Assembly (NCBI RefSeq): GCF_963665995.1
Contig: NZ_OY762512.1
Span: 3,348,001-3,412,000 of the forward strand
Reading direction: 5' to 3'
Source of the DNA: Pleurocapsa sp. FMAR1
Lineage (GTDB): Bacteria > Cyanobacteriota > Cyanobacteriia > Cyanobacteriales > Xenococcaceae
DNA: 64,000 nucleotides
Part shown: piece by piece, positions 43,522 through 61,420 of the stretch
Numbering within the stretch: position 1 is the stretch's first letter
How the letters are laid out: every line of letters starts with the position of its first letter
Made by a program: the position numbers and the translations under genes
The notes under the pieces: generated by a model
Told to the model about the DNA's origin: nothing
Database searches by the model: none
What the model saw: the letters and a program-made list of their open reading frames with translations, nothing else

Positions 43522-44490
43522 TTAATGTTTTAACTTTGGGCTAAGAGACAGCAAATTGATCAGTTCGTAGGTGATAGTCGCAGCCGCCAGGGAGGTAATT
43601 TCAGCATGGTCATAAGCGGGAGCTACTTCTACAACGTCAGCAGAAATTACAGATAGACCAGCAAGCCCTCGTAGCACCCCCAACAGTTCGCGGCTGGTCA
43701 TTCCAGCAAGTTCGGGTGTCCCTGTACCAGGAGCATGGGCTGGGTCGAGGACATCGATATCAATGGATAAATAAAGTGGGCGATCGCCTACTCGTTCTCG
43801 AATTCGTTCAACAACGCCAGTGATGCCAATGGTTTCAAACTCATCGCAATGGACAATTCTAAAACCTAGTTCCTCATCATTAGATAAATCGTGACGGCTA
43901 TAAAGCGGACCGCGAATTCCTACGTGCATTGAGGCACTATCTAGAAACAAGCCAGCCTCGGCTGCTCTTCGGAAGGGAGTGCCGTGGGTATAGGGCGCAC
44001 CAAAATAGGTGTCCCAGGTATCGAGGTGGGCATCGAAGTGAACCAAAGCCACTGGCCCGTAACGTTGATTGACTGCCTTAAGCAGGGGATAGGCGATCGT
44101 ATGGTCGCCACCCAAACTAATTATTGCTCCAGTCTGTTGAAGCAGTTCTGTAGCCGCCGTTTCGATTTGCTCGATCGCCTGATTGATATTATAGGGATTG
44201 CAGGCAATATCTCCAGCATCGGCGACTTGTTGAACCATAAACGGCTCAACGTCATAGGCAGGATGATACTGCGTCCGCAAGTTTCTAGAGGCTTGGCGGA
44301 TTGCTTGGGGACCAAACCGCGCACCAGGACGAAAACTCGTACCAGCATCAAACGGAATGCCTACAATGCCTACATCACAGTGAGGAACATCTCGAAGTTC
44401 GGGCAGGCGAGCGAAGGTTGAAGCCCCCGCATAGCGAGGTGAGATCGTGCCATTAATCGGCTGAATGGGAATTAAGTCGGGATTTTGCAT
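43522..44490 (-). CDS. Ureohydrolase: guanidinobutyrase/agmatinase-like
   Basis: A 322-residue arginase-superfamily enzyme that cleaves urea from a guanidino compound with a bimetal centre. All metal ligands are present: GGDHT (His130), DAHLDTWD (Asp153, His155, Asp157), SIDIDVLDP (Asp244, Asp246). The start (GTISPRYAGASTFARLP), GTSFRPGARFGPQAIR and HGTPFRRA are closer in my memory to Pseudomonas guanidinobutyrase/guanidinopropionase than to classical SpeB. The substrate is therefore unproven: 4-guanidinobutyrate, guanidinopropionate, guanidinoacetate or agmatine. It ends at an IS5 scar and follows the creatininase gene by 27 bp, so both form an operon. Confidence 0.88.
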   Translation of the reverse strand: MQNPDLIPIQPINGTISPRYAGASTFARLPELRDVPHCDVGIVGIPFDAGTSFRPGARFGPQAIRQASRNLRTQYHPAYDVEPFMVQQVADAGDIACNPYNINQAIEQIETAATELLQQTGAIISLGGDHTIAYPLLKAVNQRYGPVALVHFDAHLDTWDTYFGAPYTHGTPFRRAAEAGLFLDSASMHVGIRGPLYSRHDLSNDEELGFRIVHCDEFETIGITGVVERIRERVGDRPLYLSIDIDVLDPAHAPGTGTPELAGMTSRELLGVLRGLAGLSVISADVVEVAPAYDHAEITSLAAATITYELINLLSLSPKLKH

Positions 44491-44517
44491 GATGCGATCG
44501 CTATAAAGGTAAAGTAT

Positions 44518-45318
44518 TTAGGCTTTGTGATTTAGTGCTACTGCGTTAGTAACCGAACCCTGAAATTCTTGCTTGAGTGCGGTGGCAATTCCCTTGGCGA
44601 TGTGGGCTGCCATGAGTGAACCTTTCTCAACGCTGGCAGATTTAGCCGAGGAGAGTACCCCCGACGCATGAACCCAATCCGAACACTGGGGAAACAGATC
44701 GTAGGGGGGAAATTCTGCTGCTGAAACGTCAGGAATCAGATCGAGTCTGACTAAGTTTGGGTGATAATACGCCATTAGCGAGGTTTCAATTACAGCAGCG
44801 TGTTCGAGAGCAAAACCAGGAAAGCCATCTGGAAACACCTTGGTAATAATATCTGGAGTGAGAAAATCCCAGTATTCCAAGCGCATGACGCGCATTGATG
44901 TATTGCCTACATCTCGTATTGCTAGCTCGATTCCTTCAGTAAGAAACCACTGATTTTCATAATGCCCATTAACTAAAACAATTTGGGTCGCCCCTTGGCG
45001 TGCCAATTCCCGCACGATATCTCGAATTAATTGGCTCAGGCTGTTGCCATCTAAACTGGTGGTGCCAGGAAAATTTTGTCCTCCGCCACATTTGGGCTGA
45101 GATTTATAGCCATAGCTAATAGTTGGTGCAACAATGCCGTTAATTTGTTCGGCAACGCTTTGAGCTACGGAAGTACTGAGTAATGCGTCGGTGCCTAATG
45201 GCAAATGGGGACCGTGTTGCTCTAATGCACCACAAGGCAGGAGCAAGATCTGATTTTCATCCTGTAGGCGTTGCTGGTATTCAATCCAACTTAATGAACC
45301 CATCATTAGTGGATGCAT
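44518..45318 (-). CDS. Creatininase (creatinine amidohydrolase)
   Basis: Reversibly opens creatinine to creatine. The 266-residue protein keeps every metal ligand described for the Pseudomonas enzyme with a one-residue shift: Glu33, His35, Asp44, His119 and Glu121 (in LEQHG, GTDALL, NGHYEN). It also shares the long block YGYKSQPKCGGGQNFPGTT, TSLDG, and LSSAKSASVEKG. Family members can instead act on other amides (FAPy deformylase, mycofactocin factors), but this level of match to true creatininase is unusual. Start M1, M5 or M6 are possible. Co-oriented with the ureohydrolase gene downstream. Confidence 0.88.
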   Translation of the reverse strand: MHPLMMGSLSWIEYQQRLQDENQILLLPCGALEQHGPHLPLGTDALLSTSVAQSVAEQINGIVAPTISYGYKSQPKCGGGQNFPGTTSLDGNSLSQLIRDIVRELARQGATQIVLVNGHYENQWFLTEGIELAIRDVGNTSMRVMRLEYWDFLTPDIITKVFPDGFPGFALEHAAVIETSLMAYYHPNLVRLDLIPDVSAAEFPPYDLFPQCSDWVHASGVLSSAKSASVEKGSLMAAHIAKGIATALKQEFQGSVTNAVALNHKA

Positions 45319-45720
45319 AAGGTACTATCTCTCTTACAACAAATTAATTCGGCAGCAATTTGACAAGCACTATTTTGAGAAAATCCTTGATGGCTCGATC
45401 TCGCTGCTGAATTTATAGTAGAGGCACTAAAGCGATAATTTATGTAGCCTTTGTTACTAAACTATAAATTATTTTGCTGAATACGCAATGTTTTTTCGCT
45501 CCTGATTAATAAAAACACATTTTCTTTATTATATTAAATAATTTAGCAACTTTAAGCTGATATTATTACGTTTACCTTAAAAAAAAGAAAAATAAAGCTA
45601 ATGTTGAGATTACCTGACTTTCCAATAAGTAAAAAGCTAGAGGCATTGTGCAGCATAAATTCCAGCAGTTTTTATTAGCTACGCTGATTGCCAACGAAGC
45701 AAAATCCGAGCGAGGTTTCC
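45319..45720. other. 400-bp gap between creatininase and the AsnC-type regulator
   Basis: AT-rich, with no gene. It should carry the creatininase-ureohydrolase promoter on the minus strand. An octamer TTTAGCAA at 45542-45549 repeats one half of the dyad found near the regulator gene. I see no other structure. Confidence 0.4.
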
Positions 45721-46197
45721 CTAACTCAACACATATTTATACTCAGCCTTTAATAACTTCATCACCATCTGAGACTCGTAGCGAATGATACCTGGAATTT
45801 TGTGCAGCTTGGCATAGAAGGACAGCATCTCATCATGGGTATCAAAGCAGACATCAATCACTATATTGTGATGTCCAGCAGTAACGGCAACAAACTGAAC
45901 TTCTTCAATCTCAACCAATGCTTCTGCCACCGCATCAATCTTATTATTTTCGACAAAGAGTTGAACGATTACTGTGTGTGGCGTACCAAGACGATTTGGA
46001 TTAGGGGTGGCATGAATTTTCACTACCTTAGATTGAAGGAGTCGCTGTACGCGATAACGCGCCGTAGCCTCTGGAAGATTGAGCCTTTTGGCAACCTCTG
46101 TAAAGGAAATTCGCCCGTCAATTTTTAGTAAGCCAATAATGTCGCGATCGAGATCGTCAAGTGCGAATGGAGTAGTATGTGAATTCTTTTGGGTCAT
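45721..46197 (-). CDS. Lrp/AsnC-family transcriptional regulator
   Basis: A 158-residue feast/famine regulator. The N-terminal winged helix-turn-helix (DDLDRDIIGLLKIDGRISFT, EVAKRLNLPEATARYRVQRL, about residues 14-54) is followed by the effector-binding RAM domain (residues 70-155, VAVTAGHHNIVIDVCF). These proteins form octamers that respond to amino acids or related molecules. Its location between the creatininase-ureohydrolase operon and the divergent Rieske-transporter operon makes it the likely local regulator. The effector is unknown. A perfect dyad lies 35-50 bp before its start. Confidence 0.9.
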   Translation of the reverse strand: MTQKNSHTTPFALDDLDRDIIGLLKIDGRISFTEVAKRLNLPEATARYRVQRLLQSKVVKIHATPNPNRLGTPHTVIVQLFVENNKIDAVAEALVEIEEVQFVAVTAGHHNIVIDVCFDTHDEMLSFYAKLHKIPGIIRYESQMVMKLLKAEYKYVLS

Positions 46198-46519
46198 AGC
46201 GTTTGAAAAAACACAATTATGGACTAAGAAATTGCTAATTTAGCAAACAAAAAAATGTATGCAATAAGATTGTATCATAAATAACTTTTTTGCCTTGCTA
46301 CTTTATTTAAGATTAGTTTCAAAGGTTAAGGTTTTAGTAATCGAGCTAGTATTTAGCACTTTATTTATATGTGCAAAAGTTGCCAGCGTTAGATTGAAAT
46401 TTAGACAAAATTGATACTTTACGTAGTGAACACAAGCTCTGCCTTAAAAGAGCGGGGTACTTGTTATAAGCCAGAGAAGCCCCTAACCGCCTAAAAACCA
46501 TGCTATTGAGGATGTAGTC
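46198..46519. promoter_or_regulatory. Divergent control region between the regulator and Rieske genes
   Basis: This 322-bp region separates two oppositely transcribed units of the cluster. It holds the dyad at 46232-46246 close to the regulator start. An S/D-like GAGG at 46507-46510 precedes the Rieske ATG. No guanidine riboswitch consensus is recognisable, although a short GC-rich segment with GGGG/CCCC exists at 46450-46500. Confidence 0.4.
46232..46246. promoter_or_regulatory. Candidate Lrp/AsnC operator (perfect 15-bp dyad)
   Basis: TTGCTAA-T-TTAGCAA, a perfect inverted repeat around a central T, 35 bp upstream of the AsnC-type regulator start. Lrp-family sites are 13-15 bp dyads with an AT-rich centre, so autoregulation is plausible. 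A TTTAGCAA half-site recurs upstream of the creatininase operon at 45542. Confidence 0.5.
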
Positions 46520-47506
46520 ATGCTCAAAGACACTCTCATCTACGATCCGATTCTGCACGACGCTTGGCATATTGTGGCTTTAGCAGAAGATGTTAAAGCA
46601 CGACCGCTACAAGTTCATTTATTGGGTGAAACAATTGCCCTCTGGAGGTCTCAAGCAAAGATTATTGCTTGCCAAGATCGCTGTCCCCATCGGGGTGTAT
46701 CGCTCTCAATGGGATGGCTCGACGGCAACAGCGCGATTGTCTGCCCTTATCATGCAATGTCATTCGACTCGCAAGGATACTGTACTCGAATTCCAGCCGA
46801 TCTGAAAATAAAATCGTTTCCTCAAGCTGCCAATCTTCGCACCTACAAAGTTAAGGAGAAGTATGGTTTTGTTTGGGTGGCTTTGGGTGAACCAAAGCAA
46901 GAGATTCCAGTTTTTCCCGAATGGGAACAAAGTAGTGCGATCGCCTTTGAGTGCGGGCCTTATTATATTAATGCCAGTGCGCCACGCATTGTCGAAAACT
47001 TTGTCGATATTGCTCACTTTCCCTTTACCCACAGGGGTTTATTAGGCGATCCTCAGTTCCCAGAAGTGCCAAACTATAGATTGGTAGTAGAGGCTGAAGA
47101 AATTAGCGCAGAAGACATCCACTTCTATCAGCCCAATCCAGAAGGGACGGGGGAAGCCAAATCTGTTTCTTATCTCTATAAAATAGTGCGACCGTTAGTA
47201 GCTTGCTTTGCCAAGGGAGAAGACAGCAAGCAGTTTTCGATCTTTTTAGCCGTGACACCTATAGAAGAAACCCGCAGTATCGCTTGGTTGGGGGTAGCGC
47301 GCAACTATTCGCCTGAAATTGACAATGATGAACTACGCACCTTTCAAGATGAGGTCATGGCGCAAGATATACCGATGGTCGAGTCCCAGCGTCCGCAAAA
47401 GCTACCGCTAAACCTACAGCAAGAGTTTCATTTTCCCTGTGACAAAATGTCGATCGCCTATCGCAAGTGGCTCAAGCAACTCGGTCTTCAATTTGGCACC
47501 TGCTAA
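46520..47506 (+). CDS. Rieske-type non-heme iron oxygenase (VanA/N-demethylase-like)
   Basis: A 328-residue oxygenase alpha subunit. The Rieske [2Fe-2S] site is Cys55-x-His57 and Cys75-x2-His78 (CPHRG, CPYHAM). The mononuclear iron site is in ENFVDIAHFPFTHRG, with Asp163, His166 and His171 as expected positions. Relatives remove O- or N-methyl groups (vanillate, caffeine, stachydrine, carnitine-like) or hydroxylate rings. No reductase gene is nearby; photosynthetic ferredoxin could be the electron donor. It heads a plus-strand unit with an ABC importer and an NCS1 permease. The substrate is unknown. Confidence 0.88.
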   Translation: MLKDTLIYDPILHDAWHIVALAEDVKARPLQVHLLGETIALWRSQAKIIACQDRCPHRGVSLSMGWLDGNSAIVCPYHAMSFDSQGYCTRIPADLKIKSFPQAANLRTYKVKEKYGFVWVALGEPKQEIPVFPEWEQSSAIAFECGPYYINASAPRIVENFVDIAHFPFTHRGLLGDPQFPEVPNYRLVVEAEEISAEDIHFYQPNPEGTGEAKSVSYLYKIVRPLVACFAKGEDSKQFSIFLAVTPIEETRSIAWLGVARNYSPEIDNDELRTFQDEVMAQDIPMVESQRPQKLPLNLQQEFHFPCDKMSIAYRKWLKQLGLQFGTC

Positions 47507-47562
47507 TAAAGATTCTCGTATCGCTTTAGAGAACTATAACTTACTTATTTCTAGAATTAATT

Positions 47563-48432
47563 ATGAATTGGAATTTTAAACGGTCAAATTTTGGGCTTCG
47601 CCTCTGTGTTCTGCTTATCCTTGCCAGTTTAACTTGCTTTAGCGTTATCGCCTGTTCTTCGACCGATAGTGCTTCAGGAGGGAGTCAGGAAATTGTTGTA
47701 GCGACAGAAGATGACTATCCTCCCTATGATTTTCTCAAAGACGGAAAGCATGCAGGTTACAATCAGGAACTGCTCGAATTGGTGACTAAAAATGCTCCCT
47801 TTAAGGTCAAGCAAGAGATTTTACCCTTTCAAGGAATTTTGACTGGGATTGCCACTAATAAATACGATGCTACCAATGCAGCCGTGGCAATTCTAGAAGA
47901 ACGCCTGGGAACTGTAGACTATACAATGCCTACGACAGATATTACTAACTACTTTATTAAACGCAAAGGCGATCCGATTAACTCGATTGACGATATGGCA
48001 GGTAAAACCATCGGTATTCAGCAAGGCAGCGTTACTGCTCAAGTTGTGGCTGAGGAAATTAATCCAGCCTTAAAAGCAGCGGAGAAACCAGAAGCCAAAA
48101 CCGTCGAGTATGGTGCTTTTGCCGAAGCCTATCAGGATTTAGAAAACAAGCGTGTAGATGTGGTAATTAACAATTTGGTGGCACTTACTCAAACTGTAAA
48201 CGCCAAACCTGAGGTCTTTGAAATCCTCGAAAAGCCAGTGGGAGGTAAATTGTACGCTGCTTGGGCAGTTAAAGAAGGCAAAAAAGATATTCTGCAATTC
48301 TTAAACGATGGACTGGCAAAGGCGAAGACAGATGGCTCTTTGAAGCAACTACAAGAGAAATGGCTGGAGGTTACTTTTGACCTACCTAACGAGCCGAGAC
48401 TACCAGGAGATAAACCAATTCCTGCTTCCTAA
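47563..48432 (+). CDS. ABC importer substrate-binding lipoprotein (family 3)
   Basis: Binds a polar amino acid or a similar small solute in the periplasm. The signal peptide ends in a lipobox-like FSVIAC, with Cys31 likely lipidated. The mature part shows VVATEDDYPPYDFLKDGKHAGYNQELLELV (SBP_bac_3) and the C-terminal SLKQLQEKWLEV. It starts 56 bp after the Rieske stop and is followed by two permeases and an ATPase. Taken with the neighbours, a guanidino or betaine-like ligand is plausible, but that is inference. Confidence 0.9.
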   Translation: MNWNFKRSNFGLRLCVLLILASLTCFSVIACSSTDSASGGSQEIVVATEDDYPPYDFLKDGKHAGYNQELLELVTKNAPFKVKQEILPFQGILTGIATNKYDATNAAVAILEERLGTVDYTMPTTDITNYFIKRKGDPINSIDDMAGKTIGIQQGSVTAQVVAEEINPALKAAEKPEAKTVEYGAFAEAYQDLENKRVDVVINNLVALTQTVNAKPEVFEILEKPVGGKLYAAWAVKEGKKDILQFLNDGLAKAKTDGSLKQLQEKWLEVTFDLPNEPRLPGDKPIPAS

Positions 48433-48481
48433 AGCAGATTAAACTTCTGTGCGTAAATTAGTTGAATTCAAGGTGAGTTAA

Positions 48482-49123
48482 TTGGGAAATTTAGAATATT
48501 TATTGTATGGGTTATTAGTTACTTGTGCTGCATCTTTAGTCGGGGTTGTCATTGGGATTCCTCTAGGTTTAGCGATCGCTCTATGCAGAGTAAAACGGAT
48601 TCCCGTTCTCAGTCCCCTACTGGCAGTTTATGTCAGTTTCATTCGCAGTCTACCACTGGTGCTGCTAGTACTCTGGCTTTACTTTGGGATGCCGATGCTG
48701 GGTATCGACCTCAATGCCTTTGTCGCGGGTAGTATCGCCCTCGCCCTCAACCATTCCGCATTTATTAGCGAGATTTGGCGTTCCTCGATTATGAACTTTC
48801 CCGTCAAGCAAATTGAGGCAGCAAAAGCCTACGGGTTGACTGATAACCATGCCTTCGTCCGCATCATTTTGCCCCAGGTGTGGCGCACGAGCCTACCAGC
48901 GATCGCCAACGAAATTACCTTCATTATCAAAGCCAGTCCAGCCATCGGTGTGATTGGGATTGACGATCTAACCCGTCGCGCCAGCAAGTTGGCTGCCAGC
49001 AACTTCCAACCGTTAGCCATGACAGCGATCGCCATGTTGCTTTACATCATTGTTTTATTTGCCGTTACTCGCTTAACCCGCAGGCTCGATTATCGGCTAC
49101 AGCAGAGGTACGAATTGGTATGA
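48482..49123 (+). CDS. ABC importer permease, HisM/GlnP type (first)
   Basis: A 213-residue inner-membrane permease with about five helices and the EAA loop EAAKAYGLTDNHAFVRIILP near 110-130. TTG 48482 is the only usable start: an in-frame TAA lies immediately before it and AAGGTGAG precedes it by 5 bases. The family usually has about ten more residues before WxxLEYLLYGLLVT, so the N-terminus is short. The SBP, two permeases and ATPase are adjacent or overlapping, which means one complete importer. Confidence 0.88.
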   Translation: MGNLEYLLYGLLVTCAASLVGVVIGIPLGLAIALCRVKRIPVLSPLLAVYVSFIRSLPLVLLVLWLYFGMPMLGIDLNAFVAGSIALALNHSAFISEIWRSSIMNFPVKQIEAAKAYGLTDNHAFVRIILPQVWRTSLPAIANEITFIIKASPAIGVIGIDDLTRRASKLAASNFQPLAMTAIAMLLYIIVLFAVTRLTRRLDYRLQQRYELV

Positions 49124-49779
49124 GCATTCAATTTAACGTCATTATCGAACAGTTTCCCAAATTTCTTGAAGGCTTATGGAACACGGTTTGGCTTTGTTCT
49201 GTGGGTACATTTGTCTCTCTTTTGCTGGGTATTCTGCTGCTGATTCCCTTGACCTCACCTTACCCAGTTGCTCGTAATTCAGCTCAAGCATTCATCGATG
49301 CAGCCAGAGCAGTTCCTTTTCTGATGTTGGCATACTTTGTCTACTATGGGTTGCCATCTTTGGGAGTGACCTTAAACAGTTGGACAACGGCAATTTTGAC
49401 CATCATAATTTACAACACGGCTTACATGGCAGAAATTTTGCGATCGGCATGGAAAAGCTTGCCAAATGGACAAATTGAGGCAGGGCAAGCTTATGGCTTC
49501 GGTGGCTGGCAGTTATTGAGACGAATTATTTTACCTCAAGTGATGTTGGCTGCGGTGCCAGTGTTGGGTAATCAGTTTATTCAGGTAATTAAAGACTCTG
49601 CATTCCTGTCGATTATTACCATTCAAGAATTAACCTTTGTAGCGCAATCGATTCAGTCTACCTATTATATTCCCTTTGAATCATTTTTCGTCGCAGCAAT
49701 ATTGTATTGGCTCTTATGTTTAACCGTAGAATTTGGTGTCAAGCAAATTGAAAACAATCGGAGGATTTATGCTGGATAA
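49120..49779 (+). CDS. ABC importer permease, HisQ type (second)
   Basis: A 219-residue polar amino-acid permease. It has a hydrophobic start (FLEGLWNTVWLCSVGTFVSL), the EAA loop IEAGQAYGFGGWQLLRRIILP near 125-145, and KDSAFLSIITIQEL after it. The start overlaps the first permease's stop (ATGA), so the two are translationally coupled and probably make a heterodimeric channel. Confidence 0.9.
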   Translation: MSIQFNVIIEQFPKFLEGLWNTVWLCSVGTFVSLLLGILLLIPLTSPYPVARNSAQAFIDAARAVPFLMLAYFVYYGLPSLGVTLNSWTTAILTIIIYNTAYMAEILRSAWKSLPNGQIEAGQAYGFGGWQLLRRIILPQVMLAAVPVLGNQFIQVIKDSAFLSIITIQELTFVAQSIQSTYYIPFESFFVAAILYWLLCLTVEFGVKQIENNRRIYAG

Positions 49780-50563
49780 CAGAACGCAAACAAAAACGAT
49801 CGCAGCAGTGGAGTTGCAGCATTTGCAAAAAAGCTTTGGACAGCTTGAGGTATTAAAAGATATTAGTTTGTCAATTATGCCAGGAGAAACGGTATGTTTA
49901 CTCGGACCGAGCGGTTCGGGCAAATCTACCCTACTTCGCTGCATCAATTGGTTAGAGCCTCCCAGCCACGGAAAAATCATGATTCATGGAGCGCAGATGG
50001 GACGGAGAATCAGACGCGGTAAAGATTCCCCGATGACCGAAGCAGAGTTAGCCAAGATGAGAACTCGTGTCAGCATGGTCTTTCAGCATTTTAATCTTTG
50101 GCCTCACATGACGGTCTTGGAAAACGTCACCGAAGCACCAATTTACGTACAAAAGCGTCCTAAAGACGAAGTGATTGACGAAGCCAAACAACTACTGAAT
50201 AAAGTTGGGCTGCTCGAAAAAAAAGACGCTTATCCCGCTCGGCTTTCAGGGGGACAAAAACAGCGCGTAGCCATTGCTCGTGCGCTGGCGATGAAATCAG
50301 AAATAATTTTATTTGATGAACCAACGAGTGCGCTCGACCCAGAGTTAGTCGGGGAAGTACTTTCGGTTATTAAAAACATAGCAAATGAGGGGATGACGAT
50401 GCTGATTGCAACCCATGAAATGAAATTTGCCGAAGAAGTAGCCGACCAAATTGTTTTTATGGCTGGAGGCAATATTGTTGAAGCTGCCGACCCTCGCAGT
50501 TTCTTTAGAAACCCACAAACAGAGCGTGCTAAACAATTTTTAGAACGCTATATCAACGTATAA
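49769..50563 (+). CDS. ABC importer ATP-binding protein (GlnQ/HisP type)
   Basis: Drives the importer. Walker A GPSGSGKST near residue 46, Q-loop VFQHFNLWPHMTVLENV, signature LSGGQKQRVAIARAL near 155 and Walker B IILFDEPTSALDPE near 180 are all present. It also has the longer insert between Walker A and the Q-loop (MGRRIRRGKDSPMTEAEL) typical of the histidine/octopine type. ATG 49769 has GGAGG 6 bases upstream and overlaps the permease by 11 bp; a GTG at 49733 would add 12 residues. Confidence 0.93.
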   Translation: MLDNRTQTKTIAAVELQHLQKSFGQLEVLKDISLSIMPGETVCLLGPSGSGKSTLLRCINWLEPPSHGKIMIHGAQMGRRIRRGKDSPMTEAELAKMRTRVSMVFQHFNLWPHMTVLENVTEAPIYVQKRPKDEVIDEAKQLLNKVGLLEKKDAYPARLSGGQKQRVAIARALAMKSEIILFDEPTSALDPELVGEVLSVIKNIANEGMTMLIATHEMKFAEEVADQIVFMAGGNIVEAADPRSFFRNPQTERAKQFLERYINV

Positions 50564-50577
50564 ACCAGCAAAAAATT

Positions 50578-51864
50578 ATGAGCAAGACTACAGAACCAAT
50601 CGTTACAGAGCGATCGCCACAACCAAACGAAGATTTTCCTCTAACTCCCGTCCCTGTTAATTCTAGAAAGCCGATCTGGTCTTTGGCACCGCTTTTAATT
50701 GGCTTTACCCTCTATTCGGGAACTCTTTTCGGTGGAGGCTTAGTTGGTCCTAATTTTCGCTTTTTCCCCGATTTGATTGGCTTAATTGTTTTAGGAAACC
50801 TGATTTTAGGTCTATATGCGGGAGGATTGGGCTATATTGCAGCTAAAACGGGTTTGAGTACTGTCTTAATGTCACGCTGTAGCTTTGGTGAGTTTGGTTC
50901 TCGCTGGGTCGATTTTATTTTAGGTTTTACCCAAGTGGGCTGGTATGCTTGGGGTTCGGCTTTGATTGCCGATCTGCTGATAAAGCTCGCTGGTGTTCCC
51001 CCGTCTCTCAACTGGCTTTTGGTTATTATTGCTACCTATCTTTTTTGTATTACCGCATATATGGGCTACCAAGCGATGGACTGGATAAGTCGCCTTGCTG
51101 TACCTGCAATGATTATTCTGATGATTTGGAGTCTTTCTATTGCCTGGGGAGATATCGGCGGTTATACCCAGTTGCAAGCACTTCAGCCAGCAGGAAAAAT
51201 GGGAGTAGGTGAAGCTTTAACCGTGATTATCAGTACTTTTATCTCTGGTGGTACTCAGGTAACGAACTGGAGTCGTTTTGCTAGTTCGCCGAATACGGGA
51301 TTTTGGGCAACTTTCCTGGCATTCTTCTTAGCAAATGGGTTTTTAATTTTTAGCGGTGCTTTTTGTGCTTTGGTTTACGGCAACGAAGATATTGTACAGG
51401 TGATGGCACAGCAAGGTTTGTTGTTTTGGGGCTTAGTGCTATTTCTCTTAAATATGTGGACGACTCAGGATAATACAATCTATGCTTTCTCCGTCGCGGG
51501 GGCGCATATGTTTCGTACTTCCAAAAGAACTTTATTTGTTCTCGGTGGTGCTACCTTTGCCCTTGTTTTATCTCTAGGCGGTATTTATGAGGCGTTAGTT
51601 CCCTATTTAGTGTTGCTGGGAACTTTTATTCCTCCCATTGGTGGTGTCGTGATGGCAGACTTTTGGCTGTACCGTAAACAAGGGTATGATTTAGAGCAAA
51701 GACAACCGAACTTTAATTGGGCAGGTATCATAGCTTATATCTTGGCAAGTGCGATCGCCTATTTTACTCCAGGAATTAAACCAATTAACGGTATCGTTGC
51801 TGCTGCTTTGATTTACTGGCTTTTGAGTTCTATTTTAAAAAATAATTCAGAACTACAAACTTAG
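50578..51864 (+). CDS. NCS1-family cytosine/purine-type permease
   Basis: A 428-residue secondary transporter with about 12 membrane helices. The NCS1 signature pieces are visible: PIWSLAPLLIGFTLYSG, LSTVLMSRCSFGEFGSRW, QVGWYAWGSALIADLL, and NWSRFASSPNTGFWATF. Family members carry cytosine, purines, hydantoins, allantoin, and in some bacteria creatinine. It starts 14 bp after the ABC ATPase and so belongs to the same transcript as the Rieske gene. Two independent uptake systems in one operon suggest two substrates or one substrate at different affinities. Confidence 0.9.
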   Translation: MSKTTEPIVTERSPQPNEDFPLTPVPVNSRKPIWSLAPLLIGFTLYSGTLFGGGLVGPNFRFFPDLIGLIVLGNLILGLYAGGLGYIAAKTGLSTVLMSRCSFGEFGSRWVDFILGFTQVGWYAWGSALIADLLIKLAGVPPSLNWLLVIIATYLFCITAYMGYQAMDWISRLAVPAMIILMIWSLSIAWGDIGGYTQLQALQPAGKMGVGEALTVIISTFISGGTQVTNWSRFASSPNTGFWATFLAFFLANGFLIFSGAFCALVYGNEDIVQVMAQQGLLFWGLVLFLLNMWTTQDNTIYAFSVAGAHMFRTSKRTLFVLGGATFALVLSLGGIYEALVPYLVLLGTFIPPIGGVVMADFWLYRKQGYDLEQRQPNFNWAGIIAYILASAIAYFTPGIKPINGIVAAALIYWLLSSILKNNSELQT

Positions 51865-56023: not shown

Positions 56024-56863
56024 ATGGATTTGTATAGCGTCGAAACCTATCTGCGACCGAAATCAGTAACTGAAGTATCAGATTGGCAACCAGACTGGAA
56101 TTGGTTGGCTGGCGGAACCTGGATTTTTAACGAAGTCCAACCCCAGGTAAAAACCCTGGTAGATATGCAGCAGTTTGACTGGTCAGAAATAGAAGTTACC
56201 CCCCAAGGCTTATCTATTGGGACAACCTGTATTCAAAACGATTTGCTAGACTTTTCTTTTCCCAAACCTTGGTCAGCAACAGAAGCACTTAAAGATGCAG
56301 TCAGAGAACTAGCCTCGTTCAAGTTATCTCATGCTGCTACAGTGGGAGGTAATATTTGTTTGGCCTTAAGTGCCAGTACCTTCGCCCCTGCTATGGTGGC
56401 ATTGAACGCTAGCTATGAGATTTGGCGACCGCATAACGAACCTTATTTTGTTGATGCAGTTGATTTCCAAACCGCACCTCAACAAACGATCTTGCAGCCT
56501 GGGGAAGTATTACGCTCAATTAAAATTCCCATTTGGAATTTGGCGCAGTGGCAAACTAGCTTTAAACGGATGGCGGTGTGTACGGCGGGATATGCGATCG
56601 CCATTGTCGTAACGGCATATCATCCTCAAACTCAGCAAGTAAGATTTGGCATTGGCGGTAGTGTTAAAGCACCGCGTTTAATTGAATTTGATACTGTACC
56701 AACCCTCGAACAAATCGTCGGGGCAATTCGCGAATCACCTTTACAGTTATACATTGACGACGAACGAGGTAGTGCGGCATATCGCCAACACATTACCCAG
56801 GTATTAATGCAGCGGGGAATTGACGAATTAACCGCAGGAATAAACGGAAAACGCCGTTATTAA
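56024..56863 (+). CDS. Xanthine dehydrogenase-type FAD-binding subunit
   Basis: The middle subunit of xanthine dehydrogenase-like enzymes, carrying FAD. The FAD-binding block WNWLAGGTWI (about 25-35) and the SHAATVGGNICLALSAST stretch (about 103-122) are visible. The CO-dehydrogenase C-terminal domain spans about 170-279. Start ATG 56024. It is followed 45 bp later by the fused iron-sulfur/Mo subunit and stands first in the xdh operon. Confidence 0.88.
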   Translation: MDLYSVETYLRPKSVTEVSDWQPDWNWLAGGTWIFNEVQPQVKTLVDMQQFDWSEIEVTPQGLSIGTTCIQNDLLDFSFPKPWSATEALKDAVRELASFKLSHAATVGGNICLALSASTFAPAMVALNASYEIWRPHNEPYFVDAVDFQTAPQQTILQPGEVLRSIKIPIWNLAQWQTSFKRMAVCTAGYAIAIVVTAYHPQTQQVRFGIGGSVKAPRLIEFDTVPTLEQIVGAIRESPLQLYIDDERGSAAYRQHITQVLMQRGIDELTAGINGKRRY

Positions 56864-56908
56864 TCGTCGGGGCGGGTCGTTCGCCCTTACAATAATCGAT
56901 TTAAAATT
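56864..56908. repeat. GC-rich repeat-like spacer between the two xdh genes
   Basis: The 45-bp spacer contains GGGGCGGGTCGTTCGCCCTT, with imperfect arms (GGGCGG.. / ..CGCCC). This resembles the truncated dispersed GGGGCGAA.../...TTCGCCC element seen complete at 62970-63102. Confidence 0.45.
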
Positions 56909-59647
56909 ATGCCAGATTCATTAAATTTCCAGGTTAACAACCAATCCCATAACAGCAAATGTAACCCAGGAACGAGTTTATTAAGCTTACTGCGTTCTCT
57001 AGGATATGCGGGAGTGCATCGCGTTTGCGAGTCGGGAGACTGCGGTAGCTGTACGGTATGGCTGGATGATAAGCCCATTCATAGCTGCATTTGCCCTGCA
57101 ATGCGGGCGGATAGTCATCAGATAACTACTATTGAGGGATTAGAAAACGGTAGACTGTCGCCGATGCAGCAAGCTTTTTTAGATAAGCAGGGTTTCCAGT
57201 GTGGTTACTGTACTCCTGGCATGATTATGACGGCTAGCAAGCTAGAGTATGAATCAGAAGCCGAATTAAAAGCAGAACTGGAAGGTAATCTCTGTCGCTG
57301 TACTGGTTATGAGGCAATTATTGACAGCGTTCTTGAATGTGGTAACGAGAGTTCAGCTAAAACCATAGCTGCATCAGAAGGACAGGTGGGTAAAGACGTT
57401 CCCAAACAAGATGGTCCCGATCTAGTTACAGGAAAACCAGTATACACCGCCGACTGGTCGCCCCCTGGGTTATTACATCTTAAAGTATTGCGATCGCCCT
57501 ATCCCCATGCCCGTATTCGCGATATTGATACTACAAAAGCCCAAGCCCTATCAGGAGTTGAGGCAGTTTTTACCTATAAAGATATTACTCGTAAAGCCTA
57601 CAGTACCGCAGGACATGGCGCACCAGTACCCGATCCTTTAGATCATTACCTATTGGATAATAAAGTACGCTTTATTGGCGATCGCGTGGCAGCAGTAGTG
57701 GCGGAATCAGAAGCGACCGCAGCGATCGCCTGTGAATTAATTGAAGTTGATTATGAAATATTACCTCACGTAATTAATCCCCTAGAAGCAATGCAGGGAG
57801 AAACAATAATTCATGACGAACCAGAATCGAGTCAAATACACGATGCGGCACATAATATTGCGGGAGAAGTCAATCTAGACAAAGGCGATTTAGATGCGGG
57901 ATTTGCCCAAGCGGATTTAATTGTCGAAAATACTTATATTTTACCTGCCGTTCAACACGTCCATTTAGAACCCCACGTTAGTATTACTTGGTTTGATGGA
58001 GATGGTACTCTAGTGGTTCGTACCAGTACCCAAGTACCATTTCACTGCCAAAGATTGCTATCCGAACTGTTTGATATACCTAAAGAAAAGCTGAGAGTAT
58101 ATAAACCCCAGTTAGGGGGTGGTTTTGGTAACAAGCAAGATATATTAACCGAAGACTTGTGTGTCTTTGCCACAATAAAAACAGGCAAACCTATACAATG
58201 GCGATTTACCAGAGAAGAAGAATTTACCGCTACCAATAGTCGCCATGCCATGAACATCCGCCTTAAAACGGGCGTTAAAAAAGATGGTACTCTGGTAGCA
58301 CAGGAAATGAAGGCTATTTCTAACACGGGTGCTTATGGCAATCACGGAGAGGCAGTAACTTTCTTGACAGGTTGTTTTCCTCTAGGCTTATATCGCTGTG
58401 AAAATCAATCCTATAAAGGAACGGTAGTTTATACCAACACAATGCCCGCAGGCGCTTTCCGAGGTTATGGGGCAACTCAAGGCACGTTTGCAATGGAATC
58501 CCAACTCGATGAAATTGCTAAGAAATTAAACATCGATCCAATCGCGCTGCGCCAGCATAATCTAATTACTGCCAAAGATGAAATATTAATCGGCACAGAA
58601 GAACACTTTCATATTATTGGTAGCTATGCCCTCGATGAGTGTATTGAAAAAGTTACCCAGGCGTTAGATTACCAGCCAGATAAACAAACAGAAGAAGGAC
58701 ACATTAAGCGCGGTATTGGTTTCGCTGCGACGATGCAAGCCAGTGGTTTAGCTAAAATTCACTTAGCCAGGGTCAAATTATCTCTACTGCCAGATGGATA
58801 CGAACTGCGGACAGGTTCGGTTGATGTGGGTACGGGTTCGGATACGTCTTTGCGTCAGATAGCGGCACAGGTATTAGGCACGGTGGTAGAGAAAATTAAG
58901 ATAGTTACCGCCGATACTCATCACACTCCCTTTGATGCTGGTTCTTATGCTTCTGCTACGGCATTTATCACTGGACAGGCGGTAAATTTGGCGGCACAAA
59001 AACTGCGATCGCACCTGCTTAAAACCGCAGCCGAAATTAGAGAAGTTGACATAGAAACATTAGAACTAGACGAAGCTAAAATATATAGTCCTGCTACAAA
59101 AATAACTCTCCAGCAATTAGCAAAAACAGCCGAAACAGGATCTTTATCAGTAGAGTTGGAACATACAAGCGATCGCGCTTCTCTTACCTTTGCCTTTTTA
59201 GGGGCAGAAGTAGAAGTAGACACCGAAACAGGAAGGATTACGGTGTTGCGCTGCGCCGAGGCGATCGATGTTGGTCAGGCAATCAATCCTCGCATTTGTC
59301 ACGGACAGGCTACAGGCGGACTGGTAATGGGCTTAGGCTATGCCTTGAATGAAGAACTGCGCTTTAACGAACAGGGTAAAATACTCAACCCTAGCCTGCG
59401 TACCTATCGTATTCCTGCTGCTACTGACGTTCCACCAATAGAAGTATTTTTAATCGAAAAACCCGATCCCTATGGTCCTTTTGGAGCAAAAGGTATTGGC
59501 GAAATTGGTACTAATTGCGCTGCCCCAGCGATCGCTAATGCCGTAGCCAATGCAACAGGAGTTAGGCTGCGACAGTTACCGATGATTCCCGAACGAGTAT
59601 GGGAAGCAATGAACAATGAACAATTATCAATGAACAATTATCAATGA
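56909..59647 (+). CDS. Fused [2Fe-2S] + molybdopterin subunit of a xanthine dehydrogenase-type enzyme
   Basis: A 912-residue fusion. Residues 1-150 carry two iron-sulfur clusters (CESGDCGSC...C and CGYCTPG...CRCTGY). The remainder is the molybdopterin-binding domain with GGGFGNKQD, AFRGYGATQGTF and GAKGIGEIGTNCAAPA, whose Glu is the catalytic base. E. coli XdhD has the same architecture. The substrate could be a purine, aldehyde or N-heterocycle. The C-terminal tail MNNEQLSMNNYQ is encoded by tandem AATGAACAATTATC repeats and is probably not ancestral. The FAD subunit is separate, upstream. Confidence 0.88.
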   Translation: MPDSLNFQVNNQSHNSKCNPGTSLLSLLRSLGYAGVHRVCESGDCGSCTVWLDDKPIHSCICPAMRADSHQITTIEGLENGRLSPMQQAFLDKQGFQCGYCTPGMIMTASKLEYESEAELKAELEGNLCRCTGYEAIIDSVLECGNESSAKTIAASEGQVGKDVPKQDGPDLVTGKPVYTADWSPPGLLHLKVLRSPYPHARIRDIDTTKAQALSGVEAVFTYKDITRKAYSTAGHGAPVPDPLDHYLLDNKVRFIGDRVAAVVAESEATAAIACELIEVDYEILPHVINPLEAMQGETIIHDEPESSQIHDAAHNIAGEVNLDKGDLDAGFAQADLIVENTYILPAVQHVHLEPHVSITWFDGDGTLVVRTSTQVPFHCQRLLSELFDIPKEKLRVYKPQLGGGFGNKQDILTEDLCVFATIKTGKPIQWRFTREEEFTATNSRHAMNIRLKTGVKKDGTLVAQEMKAISNTGAYGNHGEAVTFLTGCFPLGLYRCENQSYKGTVVYTNTMPAGAFRGYGATQGTFAMESQLDEIAKKLNIDPIALRQHNLITAKDEILIGTEEHFHIIGSYALDECIEKVTQALDYQPDKQTEEGHIKRGIGFAATMQASGLAKIHLARVKLSLLPDGYELRTGSVDVGTGSDTSLRQIAAQVLGTVVEKIKIVTADTHHTPFDAGSYASATAFITGQAVNLAAQKLRSHLLKTAAEIREVDIETLELDEAKIYSPATKITLQQLAKTAETGSLSVELEHTSDRASLTFAFLGAEVEVDTETGRITVLRCAEAIDVGQAINPRICHGQATGGLVMGLGYALNEELRFNEQGKILNPSLRTYRIPAATDVPPIEVFLIEKPDPYGPFGAKGIGEIGTNCAAPAIANAVANATGVRLRQLPMIPERVWEAMNNEQLSMNNYQ

Positions 59648-59756
59648 GTTGTAGGGTGGGCAAGGAACTAACTATGCTACTCATCAACAATATTGTTTTT
59701 GCCCACCGAAATTACCAAAGTCGCAGTGTATACATCAATTAACAATTATCAATGAG
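59619..59756. repeat. AACAATTATCAATGAG repeats flanking an inserted element between xdh and xdhC
   Basis: AACAATTATCAATGA copies begin at 59619, 59633 (16 bases with final G) and 59741 (16 bases). Between the last two lies an inverted repeat GGTGGGCAA (59655-59663) / TTGCCCACC (59699-59707). The last copy supplies the ATGAG of the xdhC start; the middle copy supplies the stop of the Mo subunit. This fits an insertion with a 16-bp duplication at a former ATGA overlap. Confidence 0.6.
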
Positions 59757-60741
59757 CGATCGCAATTTTCATCAACAACTGAGAAGTATCTTAGAAACTG
59801 AGCCAGTAGTTATTGCAACTATAGTCAAGGTAATTGGTTCTGCGCCTAGAGAAGTTGGGGCAAAGATGGCTATATGCGCTGATGGTAGCATTATCGGTAC
59901 TATCGGCGGTGGTGCGGGGGAAGGGAAGGTAATTAAACAAGCGTTGAAGGTATTGACAACAGGAGAAAAGCAGCTTGTTGAGATAAATCTTACTGGTACG
60001 CCAGGAAAAGATATTCAGGGTGTTTGTGGCGGAAAAGTACAGGTCTGGTTAGAAACCTGGGCAGGAGTAGAAACAATCGCCTTAATTGACCGAATTATGG
60101 AATTATTTCAGACAGGACAATCAGGAAAACTAGTCACGCCTTTTACTCAAGATACTCAACCTTATTTGATTTGCGAGTACGGACGGTTCGCGAACCGTCC
60201 CTACATATTTATCGAAACAATCCAACCACCCCCCTGCTTACTTATCATTGGCGGTGGTCATGTAGCCGTATCTTTAGCTGAAGTTGCCAGCTTCGCAGGG
60301 TTTGAAATTGCCGTACAGGATGATCGCCCTGAATTTGTTACCCCCCAGAGATTTCCCCAAGCAGGGTTTCTTTTTGAATCTATGGGCGAGACTTTAAATA
60401 AATTTGCTACTTATCAGCAGCTTTATATTGCTTTAGTTACCAGAGGTTTGACCCAAGACATTGCAGCATTGCAGGCTATTTTACAGAGTTCTTTAGCCTT
60501 TCAATATATTGGCGCGATCGGTAGTCACAAACGTATCCGTATGATTCATCAAACAATACAGCAGCAAGGTATATCCTTGGAAGAATTACCCAATTTTTAC
60601 GCGCCTATTGGTTTAGATATTGGGGCATTAACTCCCCAAGAAATTGCCGTTAGTATCTGCGCTGAACTAATTAAAGTGCGTCGTGGCGGTACAGGCTTAT
60701 CCCTTCGCGAGCCAGCGCGTTGCGGGTCCATGACCCGTTGA
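59752..60741 (+). CDS. XdhC-family molybdenum cofactor insertion protein
   Basis: Binds and sulfurates molybdenum cofactor for xanthine dehydrogenase. The N-terminal XdhC_CoxI block (VIATIVKVIGSAPREVGAKM, GTIGGGAGEGKVI) and the C-terminal Rossmann domain (LLIIGGGHVAVSLAEVA, QDDRPEFVT) are both visible. Two repeat insertions affect it. One is a perfect palindrome coding for EYGRFANRPYIF in the interdomain linker. The other is a repeat that replaces the usual end with SLREPARCGSMTR. The frame stays open, so the protein may still work. Confidence 0.88.
   Translation: MSDRNFHQQLRSILETEPVVIATIVKVIGSAPREVGAKMAICADGSIIGTIGGGAGEGKVIKQALKVLTTGEKQLVEINLTGTPGKDIQGVCGGKVQVWLETWAGVETIALIDRIMELFQTGQSGKLVTPFTQDTQPYLICEYGRFANRPYIFIETIQPPPCLLIIGGGHVAVSLAEVASFAGFEIAVQDDRPEFVTPQRFPQAGFLFESMGETLNKFATYQQLYIALVTRGLTQDIAALQAILQSSLAFQYIGAIGSHKRIRMIHQTIQQQGISLEELPNFYAPIGLDIGALTPQEIAVSICAELIKVRRGGTGLSLREPARCGSMTR
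60177..60204. repeat. In-frame palindromic element inside xdhC
   Basis: GGACGGTTCGCGAACCGTCC (60181-60200) is a perfect 20-base palindrome, and GTA/TAC flank it one base out. It encodes YGRFANRP in the linker between the two XdhC domains without breaking the frame. It matches the style of dispersed GTAGGGACGGTTCGCG-type repeats in cyanobacteria. Confidence 0.7.
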
Positions 60742-60756
60742 AGCGACTGGCGAGGG
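60701..60756. repeat. GC-rich repeat forming the 3' end of xdhC
   Basis: An imperfect inverted repeat CCCTTCGCGAGCCAG / GCGACTGGCGAGGG with a perfect inner stem CGGGTC-CAT-GACCCG at 60723-60737, followed by GCGATCGC. It supplies the last codons and stop of xdhC. Confidence 0.6.
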
Positions 60757-60811
60757 TGCGATCGCCTAGAGCATTCAAAAGCAGCGAAAGTTCACATAGG
60801 AGAACTACTTT

Positions 60812-61420
60812 ATGCAAAACTGCTCTGATCGAGATTTCGCCATAATTTTAGCAGCAGGTTACTCTACCCGTATGGGAACTTGTAAAACTGCTTTACCCTG
60901 GCGTAACAATCAAACTCTGCTACGCTATCAAGCCGAACAATTTTTACAGGCTGGCATTACACCAATTATTGTACTTGGTTCTCATAATGCCCACAGGAGA
61001 TCGGATTGTCCGAAAGGTAGCCAAGTTGTAATTAATTTAGATTGCGATCGCGGTAAAACAAGTTCTATCTTAGCTGGCTTAGACTGTCTCCCTCTAGAAT
61101 TTTCAACCATTACCATTTCTGCCGTCGATCAACCTCGTTCTCTTTATATTTATCAAACTTTATTACAGACTTTTTATCAAGAAAAGGCTTTGATTACTGC
61201 ACCTTTTTATCAGGGTAAATTAGGGCATCCACTATTATTTTCTGAGCAATTATTCCCCGAACTCAAAAAGATAAGTGAGTCGAGTTTAGGATTACGAAAA
61301 ATTGTTAAAGAGTTTTATGATCACATCAAAAAAATAGCATTCGATCATCCTGAAGTTTTAAGCGATCTTAATCATAAGGTTACCTATAACAATGGTTTGG
61401 ACAAAATTAAGAGGCAATAG
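60812..61420 (+). CDS. MocA-like molybdenum cofactor nucleotidyltransferase
   Basis: Activates molybdenum cofactor, probably to the cytosine dinucleotide form needed by many xanthine dehydrogenase-type enzymes. The NTP-binding motif LAAGYSTRMGTCKTALPW near 12-29 is the MobA/MocA signature. The metal-binding region ISAVDQPRS near 107 and the acceptor block KLGHPLLFS near 135 follow. 202 residues. It sits 70 bp after xdhC and completes a functional unit FAD subunit - Fe-S/Mo subunit - XdhC - MocA. Confidence 0.85.
   Translation: MQNCSDRDFAIILAAGYSTRMGTCKTALPWRNNQTLLRYQAEQFLQAGITPIIVLGSHNAHRRSDCPKGSQVVINLDCDRGKTSSILAGLDCLPLEFSTITISAVDQPRSLYIYQTLLQTFYQEKALITAPFYQGKLGHPLLFSEQLFPELKKISESSLGLRKIVKEFYDHIKKIAFDHPEVLSDLNHKVTYNNGLDKIKRQ

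What the first reader, a model, noticed from the sequence alone, without database searches (positions are those of the whole stretch)
43522..51864. Possible creatinine (N-methyl-guanidino) catabolic regulon with a Rieske demethylase step
Sequence shows a creatininase with all metal ligands, a guanidinobutyrase-like ureohydrolase, an AsnC/Lrp regulator, a Rieske oxygenase of the N/O-demethylase type, a full amino-acid ABC importer and an NCS1 permease, within 8.4 kb. Known: creatininase yields creatine; ureohydrolases split guanidino acids to urea and an amine; Rieske enzymes demethylate glycine betaine, caffeine and stachydrine. Inference: creatinine is opened to creatine, the Rieske enzyme demethylates it to guanidinoacetate, and the ureohydrolase releases urea plus glycine. 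Classical creatinase and sarcosine oxidase are absent. I know of no described cyanobacterial route of this kind.
Basis: partly seen in the sequence, partly recalled or inferred. Interest (0 to 1): 0.85.

Follow-up and report, generated by a model that had tools for sequence, protein, structure and literature searches.

The report
Cyanobacterial creatinine-to-urea gene module
Some cyanobacteria carry a compact, apparently nitrogen-controlled gene set that looks able to take up creatinine (a waste product in animal urine) or a close chemical relative and release its nitrogen as urea, using an enzyme pair different from the textbook bacterial route.

Summary
In detail: every gene named is at the stated coordinates. 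A divergent four-gene core (Rieske, AsnC/Lrp, creatininase, guanidino-acid ureohydrolase) recurs at 76-96% identity; with the window I hold 9 loci: AsnC+creatininase in 9 of 9, ureohydrolase in 8, intact Rieske gene in 7 (only remnants in 2). The NCS1 permease follows the Rieske gene in one relative too; the ABC importer was seen only here. An exact NtcA-type site precedes creatininase in 7 of 9. M24 creatinase was not found in the own genome or 11 related ones. Other ureohydrolase lineages lie beside creatininase in a gammaproteobacterium and a Rhizobium plasmid, and near it in another cyanobacterium, so the creatininase-ureohydrolase coupling is probably real and repeatedly assembled. Best reading: creatinine to creatine to urea plus sarcosine, Rieske demethylation accessory. 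All substrates are inferred; against it, the ureohydrolase's closest kin sit in guanidinobutyrate-like contexts and a related human enzyme does not cleave creatine.

The parts
43522..44490 (-). Guanidino-acid ureohydrolase; proposed to release urea from the ring-opened guanidino acid
   Evidence: PF00491 326 bits; GpuA/GbuA-type motifs, Tyr at the GpuA Tyr157 position (role of that residue recalled); 87-96% identical in 7 further type A loci, one of them truncated by the contig end
44518..45318 (-). Creatininase; proposed to open creatinine or a close cyclic relative
   Evidence: TIGR04448 354 bits, cut-off 235; catalytic residues kept, lid W174 replaced by F; 76-85% in 8 further type A loci
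45444..45457 (-). NtcA-type site GTAN8TAC upstream of creatininase, with a TAN3T -10 element 23 bp further on
   Evidence: exact site in 7 of 9 type A loci, with the -10 element in 6 of 9; in the 8 loci, 0 of 2000 shuffles reach the observed count
45721..46197 (-). AsnC/Lrp-family regulator
   Evidence: PF13404 and PF01037; present in 9 of 9 type A loci
46232..46246 (.). Perfect dyad TTGCTAATTTAGCAA, 34 bp from the AsnC/Lrp start; putative operator of that regulator
   Evidence: only match with at most 1 mismatch in the 64 kb window; same dyad with 0-2 mismatches in the gap of all 9 loci, weaker in the five with 2 mismatches (15-37 of 1000 shuffles do as well)
46520..47506 (+). Rieske non-heme iron oxygenase (SxtT/GxtA and NdmA-like); proposed accessory N-demethylase or hydroxylase
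   Evidence: PF00355 and PF19112; CPHRG/CPYHAM cluster motifs and D163, H166, H171, D283 kept; intact in 7 of 9 loci, remnants in L036 and L037
47563..48432 (+). Polar-amino-acid-type solute-binding protein
   Evidence: PF00497 94 bits; not next to the module in the other 8 loci
48482..49123 (+). ABC permease 1
   Evidence: PF00528
49120..49779 (+). ABC permease 2
   Evidence: PF00528
49733..50563 (+). ABC ATPase (listed TTG start; an ATG at about 49768 is a likelier start)
   Evidence: PF00005; sequence printed
50578..51864 (+). CodB-like NCS1 permease; proposed importer of the heterocycle
   Evidence: PRK11017 457 bits, cut-off 326; directly follows the Rieske gene in L216, 88% identical

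Best explanation
A nitrogen-scavenging module for creatinine (or a very close cyclic guanidino compound). The NCS1 permease, and in this strain an added ABC importer, bring the substrate in. Creatininase opens the ring to creatine. The ureohydrolase takes over the job that the unrelated M24-family creatinase does elsewhere and splits creatine into urea and sarcosine; urease then frees ammonia. The Rieske oxygenase removes the N-methyl group at some point (creatinine, creatine or sarcosine, giving formaldehyde) as a useful but dispensable step. NtcA switches the creatininase-ureohydrolase operon on under nitrogen shortage, and the AsnC/Lrp protein senses a pathway compound and acts at the dyad between itself and the Rieske gene. 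Shown: gene content, conservation, gene order, regulatory motifs, absence of a creatinase match. Inferred: every substrate, the place of the Rieske step, and both regulators' action.
For: Core conserved in 9 loci. Ureohydrolases of separate clades are joined to creatininase: type A with actinobacterial enzymes, L104 and L143 with GpuA, L042 with a third group; L104 and L143 are directly adjacent, L042 lies about 3 kb away with genes on both strands between. In 11 of 96 creatininase loci an M24 creatinase is near, in 9 a ureohydrolase, in none both. No creatinase match above 33 bits in 11 related genomes or above 40 bits in the own genome. In proteobacterial plasmids the same creatininase family sits with M24 creatinase, Pot-type importers, and in 3 of those 11 loci an NCS1-family gene right after it, so the family context is creatinine use. 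NtcA-type site in 7 of 9. Two UreC genes. The Rieske gene is lost in 2 of 9 loci, ureohydrolase in 1 of 9.
Against: No substrate is demonstrated. The exclusion of M24 and ureohydrolase is not significant alone (about 1 joint locus expected). The type A ureohydrolase is 50-60% identical to actinobacterial enzymes beside a ketoarginine-decarboxylase-like or amino-acid-permease/nitrilase-family set, a guanidinobutyrate-like context, and its motifs match theirs. Human AGMAT, a GbuA relative, does not hydrolyse guanidinoacetate or creatine at 10 mM (PMC9772407, passages). Creatininase has lost lid residue W174, as have all its closest relatives in clusters of another make-up. The NCS1 permease is only 24% identical to the creatininase-linked NCS1 protein of Azoarcus. 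L038's genome (a MAG) lacks the ureohydrolase.
Confidence: 0.42

Rival explanations
1. One reading: creatininase makes creatine, the Rieske enzyme demethylates it to guanidinoacetate, and the ureohydrolase, a guanidinoacetase, yields urea and glycine. A variant has the Rieske enzyme act first on creatinine, so that creatininase opens glycocyamidine.
For: The Rieske gene is conserved and under selection where intact; the NdmA-type N-demethylase is its second-nearest solved family; no M24 creatinase or heterotetrameric sarcosine oxidase match in the genome.
Against: Rieske gene decayed in L036 and L037 with creatininase and ureohydrolase intact, although those genomes keep a 42% paralogue elsewhere that might stand in. 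L104 and L143 have the pair without a Rieske match in the stretch held. Candidate sarcosine-oxidising enzymes exist. AGMAT does not take guanidinoacetate.
Confidence: 0.2
2. Another substrate: the creatininase-like enzyme opens the ring of a different cyclic guanidino acid (for example the lactam of 3-guanidinopropionate or 4-guanidinobutyrate), the Rieske enzyme hydroxylates or demethylates such a ring, and the ureohydrolase is an ordinary guanidinopropionase or guanidinobutyrase.
For: Ureohydrolase clade and motifs; GpuA-like Tyr in the chain-length position (role recalled); lid change W174F in this creatininase clade; the Rieske enzyme's nearest solved relatives act on guanidinium rings without demethylating (reaction recalled).
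Against: Equivalog-level creatininase score; related creatininases sit with true creatinase genes. No natural source of such lactams is known to me.
Confidence: 0.25
3. Two independent units side by side: a creatininase/ureohydrolase operon and an unrelated Rieske-plus-permease operon that share only the divergent regulator.
For: Rieske and creatininase are transcribed apart; Rieske and ureohydrolase genes are each lost in some loci; the NtcA-type site was found only on the creatininase side.
Against: Same order and shared regulator in 7 of 9 loci; the dyad lies between regulator and Rieske gene.
Confidence: 0.13

Closest known systems
Classical creatinine pathway (creatininase, M24 creatinase, sarcosine oxidase), as in the plasmid loci L146, L152-L160 and L162
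   Same: Creatininase family (44-50% identical in these loci); NCS1-family gene after creatininase in L146, L152 and L155; a Pot-type importer in L034, L036 and L037 as in 9 of these 11 loci
   Different: A ureohydrolase instead of M24 creatinase; Rieske oxygenase; AsnC/Lrp regulator instead of LysR/GlxA; NtcA-type promoter
Guanidino-acid ureohydrolases GpuA, GbuA, human AGMAT
   Same: Fold family, metal motifs, GIRG-x-x-Y loop, 'agmatinase' model hit
   Different: Linked to creatininase; AGMAT itself rejects creatine and guanidinoacetate
Rieske oxygenases SxtT/GxtA (saxitoxin pathway) and NdmA/NdmB (caffeine N-demethylases)
   Same: 34-36% identity and TM 0.80-0.85 to SxtT/GxtA; 26-30% and TM 0.72-0.73 to NdmA/NdmB
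   Different: No biosynthetic neighbours; part of a catabolic-looking, nitrogen-regulated set; CPYHAM instead of CPYHG after the second cluster motif in most relatives
Methylguanidine demethylation by MgdH/MgdL with guanidine carboxylase (PMC12508155, passages)
   Same: Oxidative removal of a methyl group from a guanidino compound for nitrogen use
   Different: That enzyme is 2-oxoglutarate-dependent and its genes are riboswitch-controlled; here a Rieske enzyme, and no Rfam match in the window
Creatine/creatinine use in Corynebacterium glutamicum under AmtR (PMC8864220, passages)
   Same: Creatininase-family gene and transporters under the global nitrogen regulator
   Different: Goes through N-methylhydantoin and N-carbamoylsarcosine; no ureohydrolase or Rieske enzyme in the passages seen

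Membership tests
Creatininase (TIGR04448) | Score over the curated equivalog cut-off | tested here: met
   354 against 235 bits
Creatininase (TIGR04448) | Metal ligands E34, H36, D45, H120, E122 and catalytic H178 | tested here: met
   (residue roles recalled)
Creatininase (TIGR04448) | Lid residue W174 (P. putida numbering) | tested here: not met
   F in all 8 type A loci examined; W in 14 of 16 plasmid loci. Effect on activity not known from any call
Creatininase (TIGR04448) | Hydrolysis of creatinine | not testable with these tools
   needs an assay
Guanidino-acid ureohydrolase | Arginase-fold metal motifs and acid-binding loop absent from agmatinases | tested here: met
   GGDH, DAHLD, DIDVLD and GIRGPLY; the two agmatinases aligned read GIRTW and GIRTE
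Guanidino-acid ureohydrolase | Chain-length choice (creatine/guanidinoacetate against longer acids) | tested here: inconclusive
   Tyr as in GpuA, motifs as in actinobacterial enzymes; pocket loops under pLDDT 50 in the model
Classical creatinine pathway | M24-family creatinase | tested here: not met
   own genome best 40 bits, 26% identity; 11 related genomes best 32 bits
Classical creatinine pathway | Sarcosine oxidase or dehydrogenase in the genome | tested here: inconclusive
   no SoxB; SolA-family and DMGDH-like candidates
Rieske N-demethylase (NdmA-like) / SxtT-GxtA group | Intact Rieske cluster and mononuclear iron motifs | tested here: met
Rieske N-demethylase (NdmA-like) / SxtT-GxtA group | N-demethylating rather than hydroxylating activity | not testable with these tools
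   nearest solved proteins are SxtT/GxtA, then NdmA
NtcA-activated promoter | GTAN8TAC followed after 19-25 bases by TAN3T (consensus recalled) | tested here: met
   6 of 9 type A loci with both, 7 of 9 with the site; 0 of 2000 shuffles
NtcA-activated promoter | NtcA binding and induction on nitrogen shortage | not testable with these tools
   needs gel shift and transcript data
Guanidine-riboswitch regulon | Guanidine riboswitch near the genes | tested here: not met
   0 Rfam matches at gathering score in the window

The most novel reading that the evidence does not exclude
Ureohydrolases have repeatedly replaced the M24 creatinase: in cyanobacteria, a gammaproteobacterium and a Rhizobium plasmid, different ureohydrolase lineages were recruited as creatine hydrolases behind creatininase. 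In cyanobacteria this became an NtcA-controlled module with a Rieske demethylase whose nearest solved kin act on the guanidinium rings of the saxitoxin pathway, suggesting that this Rieske group has an ancestral link with small guanidino heterocycles.
Probability: 0.3. Interest if true: 0.75.

Novelty: new variant of a known kind. Interest (0 to 1): 0.57.

Why it matters
If true, cyanobacteria can use a major nitrogen waste of animals by an undescribed route, a second fold does creatinase chemistry, and a small conserved gene set becomes testable for substrate, for Rieske function outside toxin pathways, and for nitrogen control of guanidino-compound use. I found no cyanobacterial creatininase route in the papers held; subscription papers and preprints are not held there.

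Tried and rejected
Guanidine riboswitch: no Rfam match. Guanidine hydrolase (GdmH) identity for the ureohydrolase: the GdmH-like paralogues of cyanobacteria are 33-37% identical and branch far off (the name GdmH-like is recalled). Tryptophan before the GpuA-Tyr position as a creatine signature: dropped, because actinobacterial enzymes and one agmatinase share it. ABC importer as a conserved member: rejected; the similarity to importers near creatininase in 6 of 80 loci (44-45%, 204-209 bits) is barely above the best plasmid match (41%, 201 bits). NCS1 permease as orthologue of the classical creatininase-linked one: rejected, 24% identity. Mutual exclusion of M24 creatinase and ureohydrolase: true in the sample (11, 9, 0 of 96) but not significant. 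Ureohydrolase structure model: too uncertain at the pocket to use. Papers: PMC12508155, PMC11399263, PMC9772407, PMC10833137 and PMC8864220 were seen as passages only; all others as search listings.
Full report
What is there. One search gives nine ORFs in two divergent sets: (-) AsnC/Lrp, creatininase, ureohydrolase; (+) Rieske, solute-binding protein, two permeases, ATPase, NCS1. In the (+) set the gaps are 56, 49, -4, -47 and 14 bp, so it looks like one operon; creatininase and ureohydrolase are 27 bp apart; 402 bp separate AsnC/Lrp from creatininase. Family scores are, nearest solved chains.

How rare it is. In 386 cyanobacterial-phylum genomes the creatininase model is over its cut-off in 1 (the own genome; 179 have weaker family matches). 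The next-best match to the window's Rieske protein is 45% (197 of 386 with any match at E 0.001), and to the ureohydrolase 47% (351 of 386 with any match). In 27 genomes of the own family the creatininase is shared by 1 relative (86%, G406); the others have matches of at most 36%. The distribution is patchy.

Related loci. A scan of named genomes with creatininase gave 168 relatives, of which the best 80 are held. Seven (L033-L039) share the window's arrangement; L216 from G406 makes eight, the window nine. AsnC/Lrp and creatininase are in all nine; the ureohydrolase is missing only in L038, whose genome, a MAG, has no better match than 30%; the Rieske gene is intact in seven. In L036 it is cut at about residue 110 and frame-shifted; in L037 only the last 35 codons remain; the two genomes have a 42% Rieske paralogue elsewhere. 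In L216 the NCS1 permease (88%) directly follows the Rieske gene and the ABC importer is absent. L034, L036 and L037 carry instead a Pot-type importer and two TRZ/ATZ-type amidohydrolases.

The remaining creatininases of the scan (up to 74% identical) lie with SDR, NMT1-type binding protein, fatty-acid-desaturase-like and biuret-hydrolase-like genes (51, 35, 29 and 28 of the 80 loci for the clusters C1, C2, C4, C5, annotation of one member each; one type A locus, L034, also holds a C1 gene). Their pathway is unknown to me, and they share the W174F or W174Y lid change. This is the main reason for caution about creatinine as the substrate.

Link of creatininase and ureohydrolase. Of 96 creatininase loci (80 from the scan, 16 plasmid loci), 11 have an M24 creatinase, 9 a ureohydrolase, none both, 76 neither. 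The ureohydrolases are not one lineage: type A groups with actinobacterial enzymes (99/98), L104 and L143 with GpuA (100/99), L042 with a cyanobacterial and a Rubrobacter enzyme (98/98) (the tool warns of long-branch joins elsewhere in that tree). L143 has its 'speB' starting 1 bp after creatininase; in L104 the two genes are adjacent; in L042 they are about 3 kb apart with genes on both strands between. Whole-genome searches found no creatinase match above 33 bits in 11 related genomes.

Regulation. GTAN8TAC occurs in the 450 bp before creatininase in 6 of 8 type A loci, with a TAN3T element at NtcA spacing in 5; 2000 first-order shuffles of the same sequences never reach either count (means 0.34 and 0.055). 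L216 adds a seventh site and a sixth complete promoter; L038 and L039 lack the exact site. Of 11 other cyanobacterial creatininase loci 5 have the site, none with the -10 element. A dyad TTGCTAN3TAGCAA is perfect in the window, with 1 mismatch in three loci and 2 in five. The NtcA consensus and its spacing are recalled.

The Rieske enzyme. The model (mean pLDDT 78; residues 165-170 and 285-306, near the iron site, are below 50) matches SxtT/GxtA best (TM 0.80-0.85, 34-36% identity) and NdmA/NdmB next (TM 0.72-0.73). Relatives at 38-45% in 16 other cyanobacteria have varied neighbours; beside three of them (L148, L182, L188) lie nucleoside/BMP-type ABC genes (L182 and L188 named from their first residues by eye). 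This places the enzyme in a group that works on small nitrogen heterocycles, without fixing demethylation or its substrate. No reductase gene lies in the window module.

Fate of products. The genome has two urease alpha genes. At 739-747 kb it has a SolA-family oxidase, a GbcA-like Rieske protein and an FAD/GcvT protein near a BCCT-type transporter (the transporter named by eye), a betaine-type set that could also take sarcosine. So sarcosine need not be a dead end.

Verdict. A real, conserved and probably nitrogen-regulated module, new in its combination. The creatininase-ureohydrolase coupling is the strongest part; the Rieske demethylation of creatine is the weakest. Substrates need assays.

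Noticed in passing
window 56024-61420: FAD-binding subunit, fused 2Fe-2S/molybdopterin oxidoreductase, XdhC-like and MobA-like genes on the + strand 4 kb downstream: a xanthine-dehydrogenase-type set, possibly purine use; link to the module not tested.
   Followed up: no
genome C1 2444028-2444756 (L001): A second creatininase-family gene (250 bits to PF02633, about 28% identical to the window's); similar genes are widespread in cyanobacteria.
   Followed up: no
L060:11569-12432 and its relatives (cluster C3, 31 of 80 creatininase loci): An uncharacterised protein recurring next to creatininase, with no Pfam or NCBIfam match for the one member scanned.
   Followed up: partly
L040-L112, mainly betaproteobacteria: A different creatininase cluster with SDRs, fatty-acid-desaturase-like protein, NMT1-type importer and biuret-hydrolase-like protein; pathway unknown.
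   Followed up: partly
L034, L036, L037: Two tandem TRZ/ATZ (8-oxoguanine-deaminase-like) amidohydrolases plus a Pot-type importer beside the module; the Rieske gene is decayed in two of these three loci.
   Followed up: partly
L216:14217-15560: D-amino-acid-dehydrogenase-family gene about 250 bp after the NCS1 permease; could oxidise a product amino acid.
   Followed up: no
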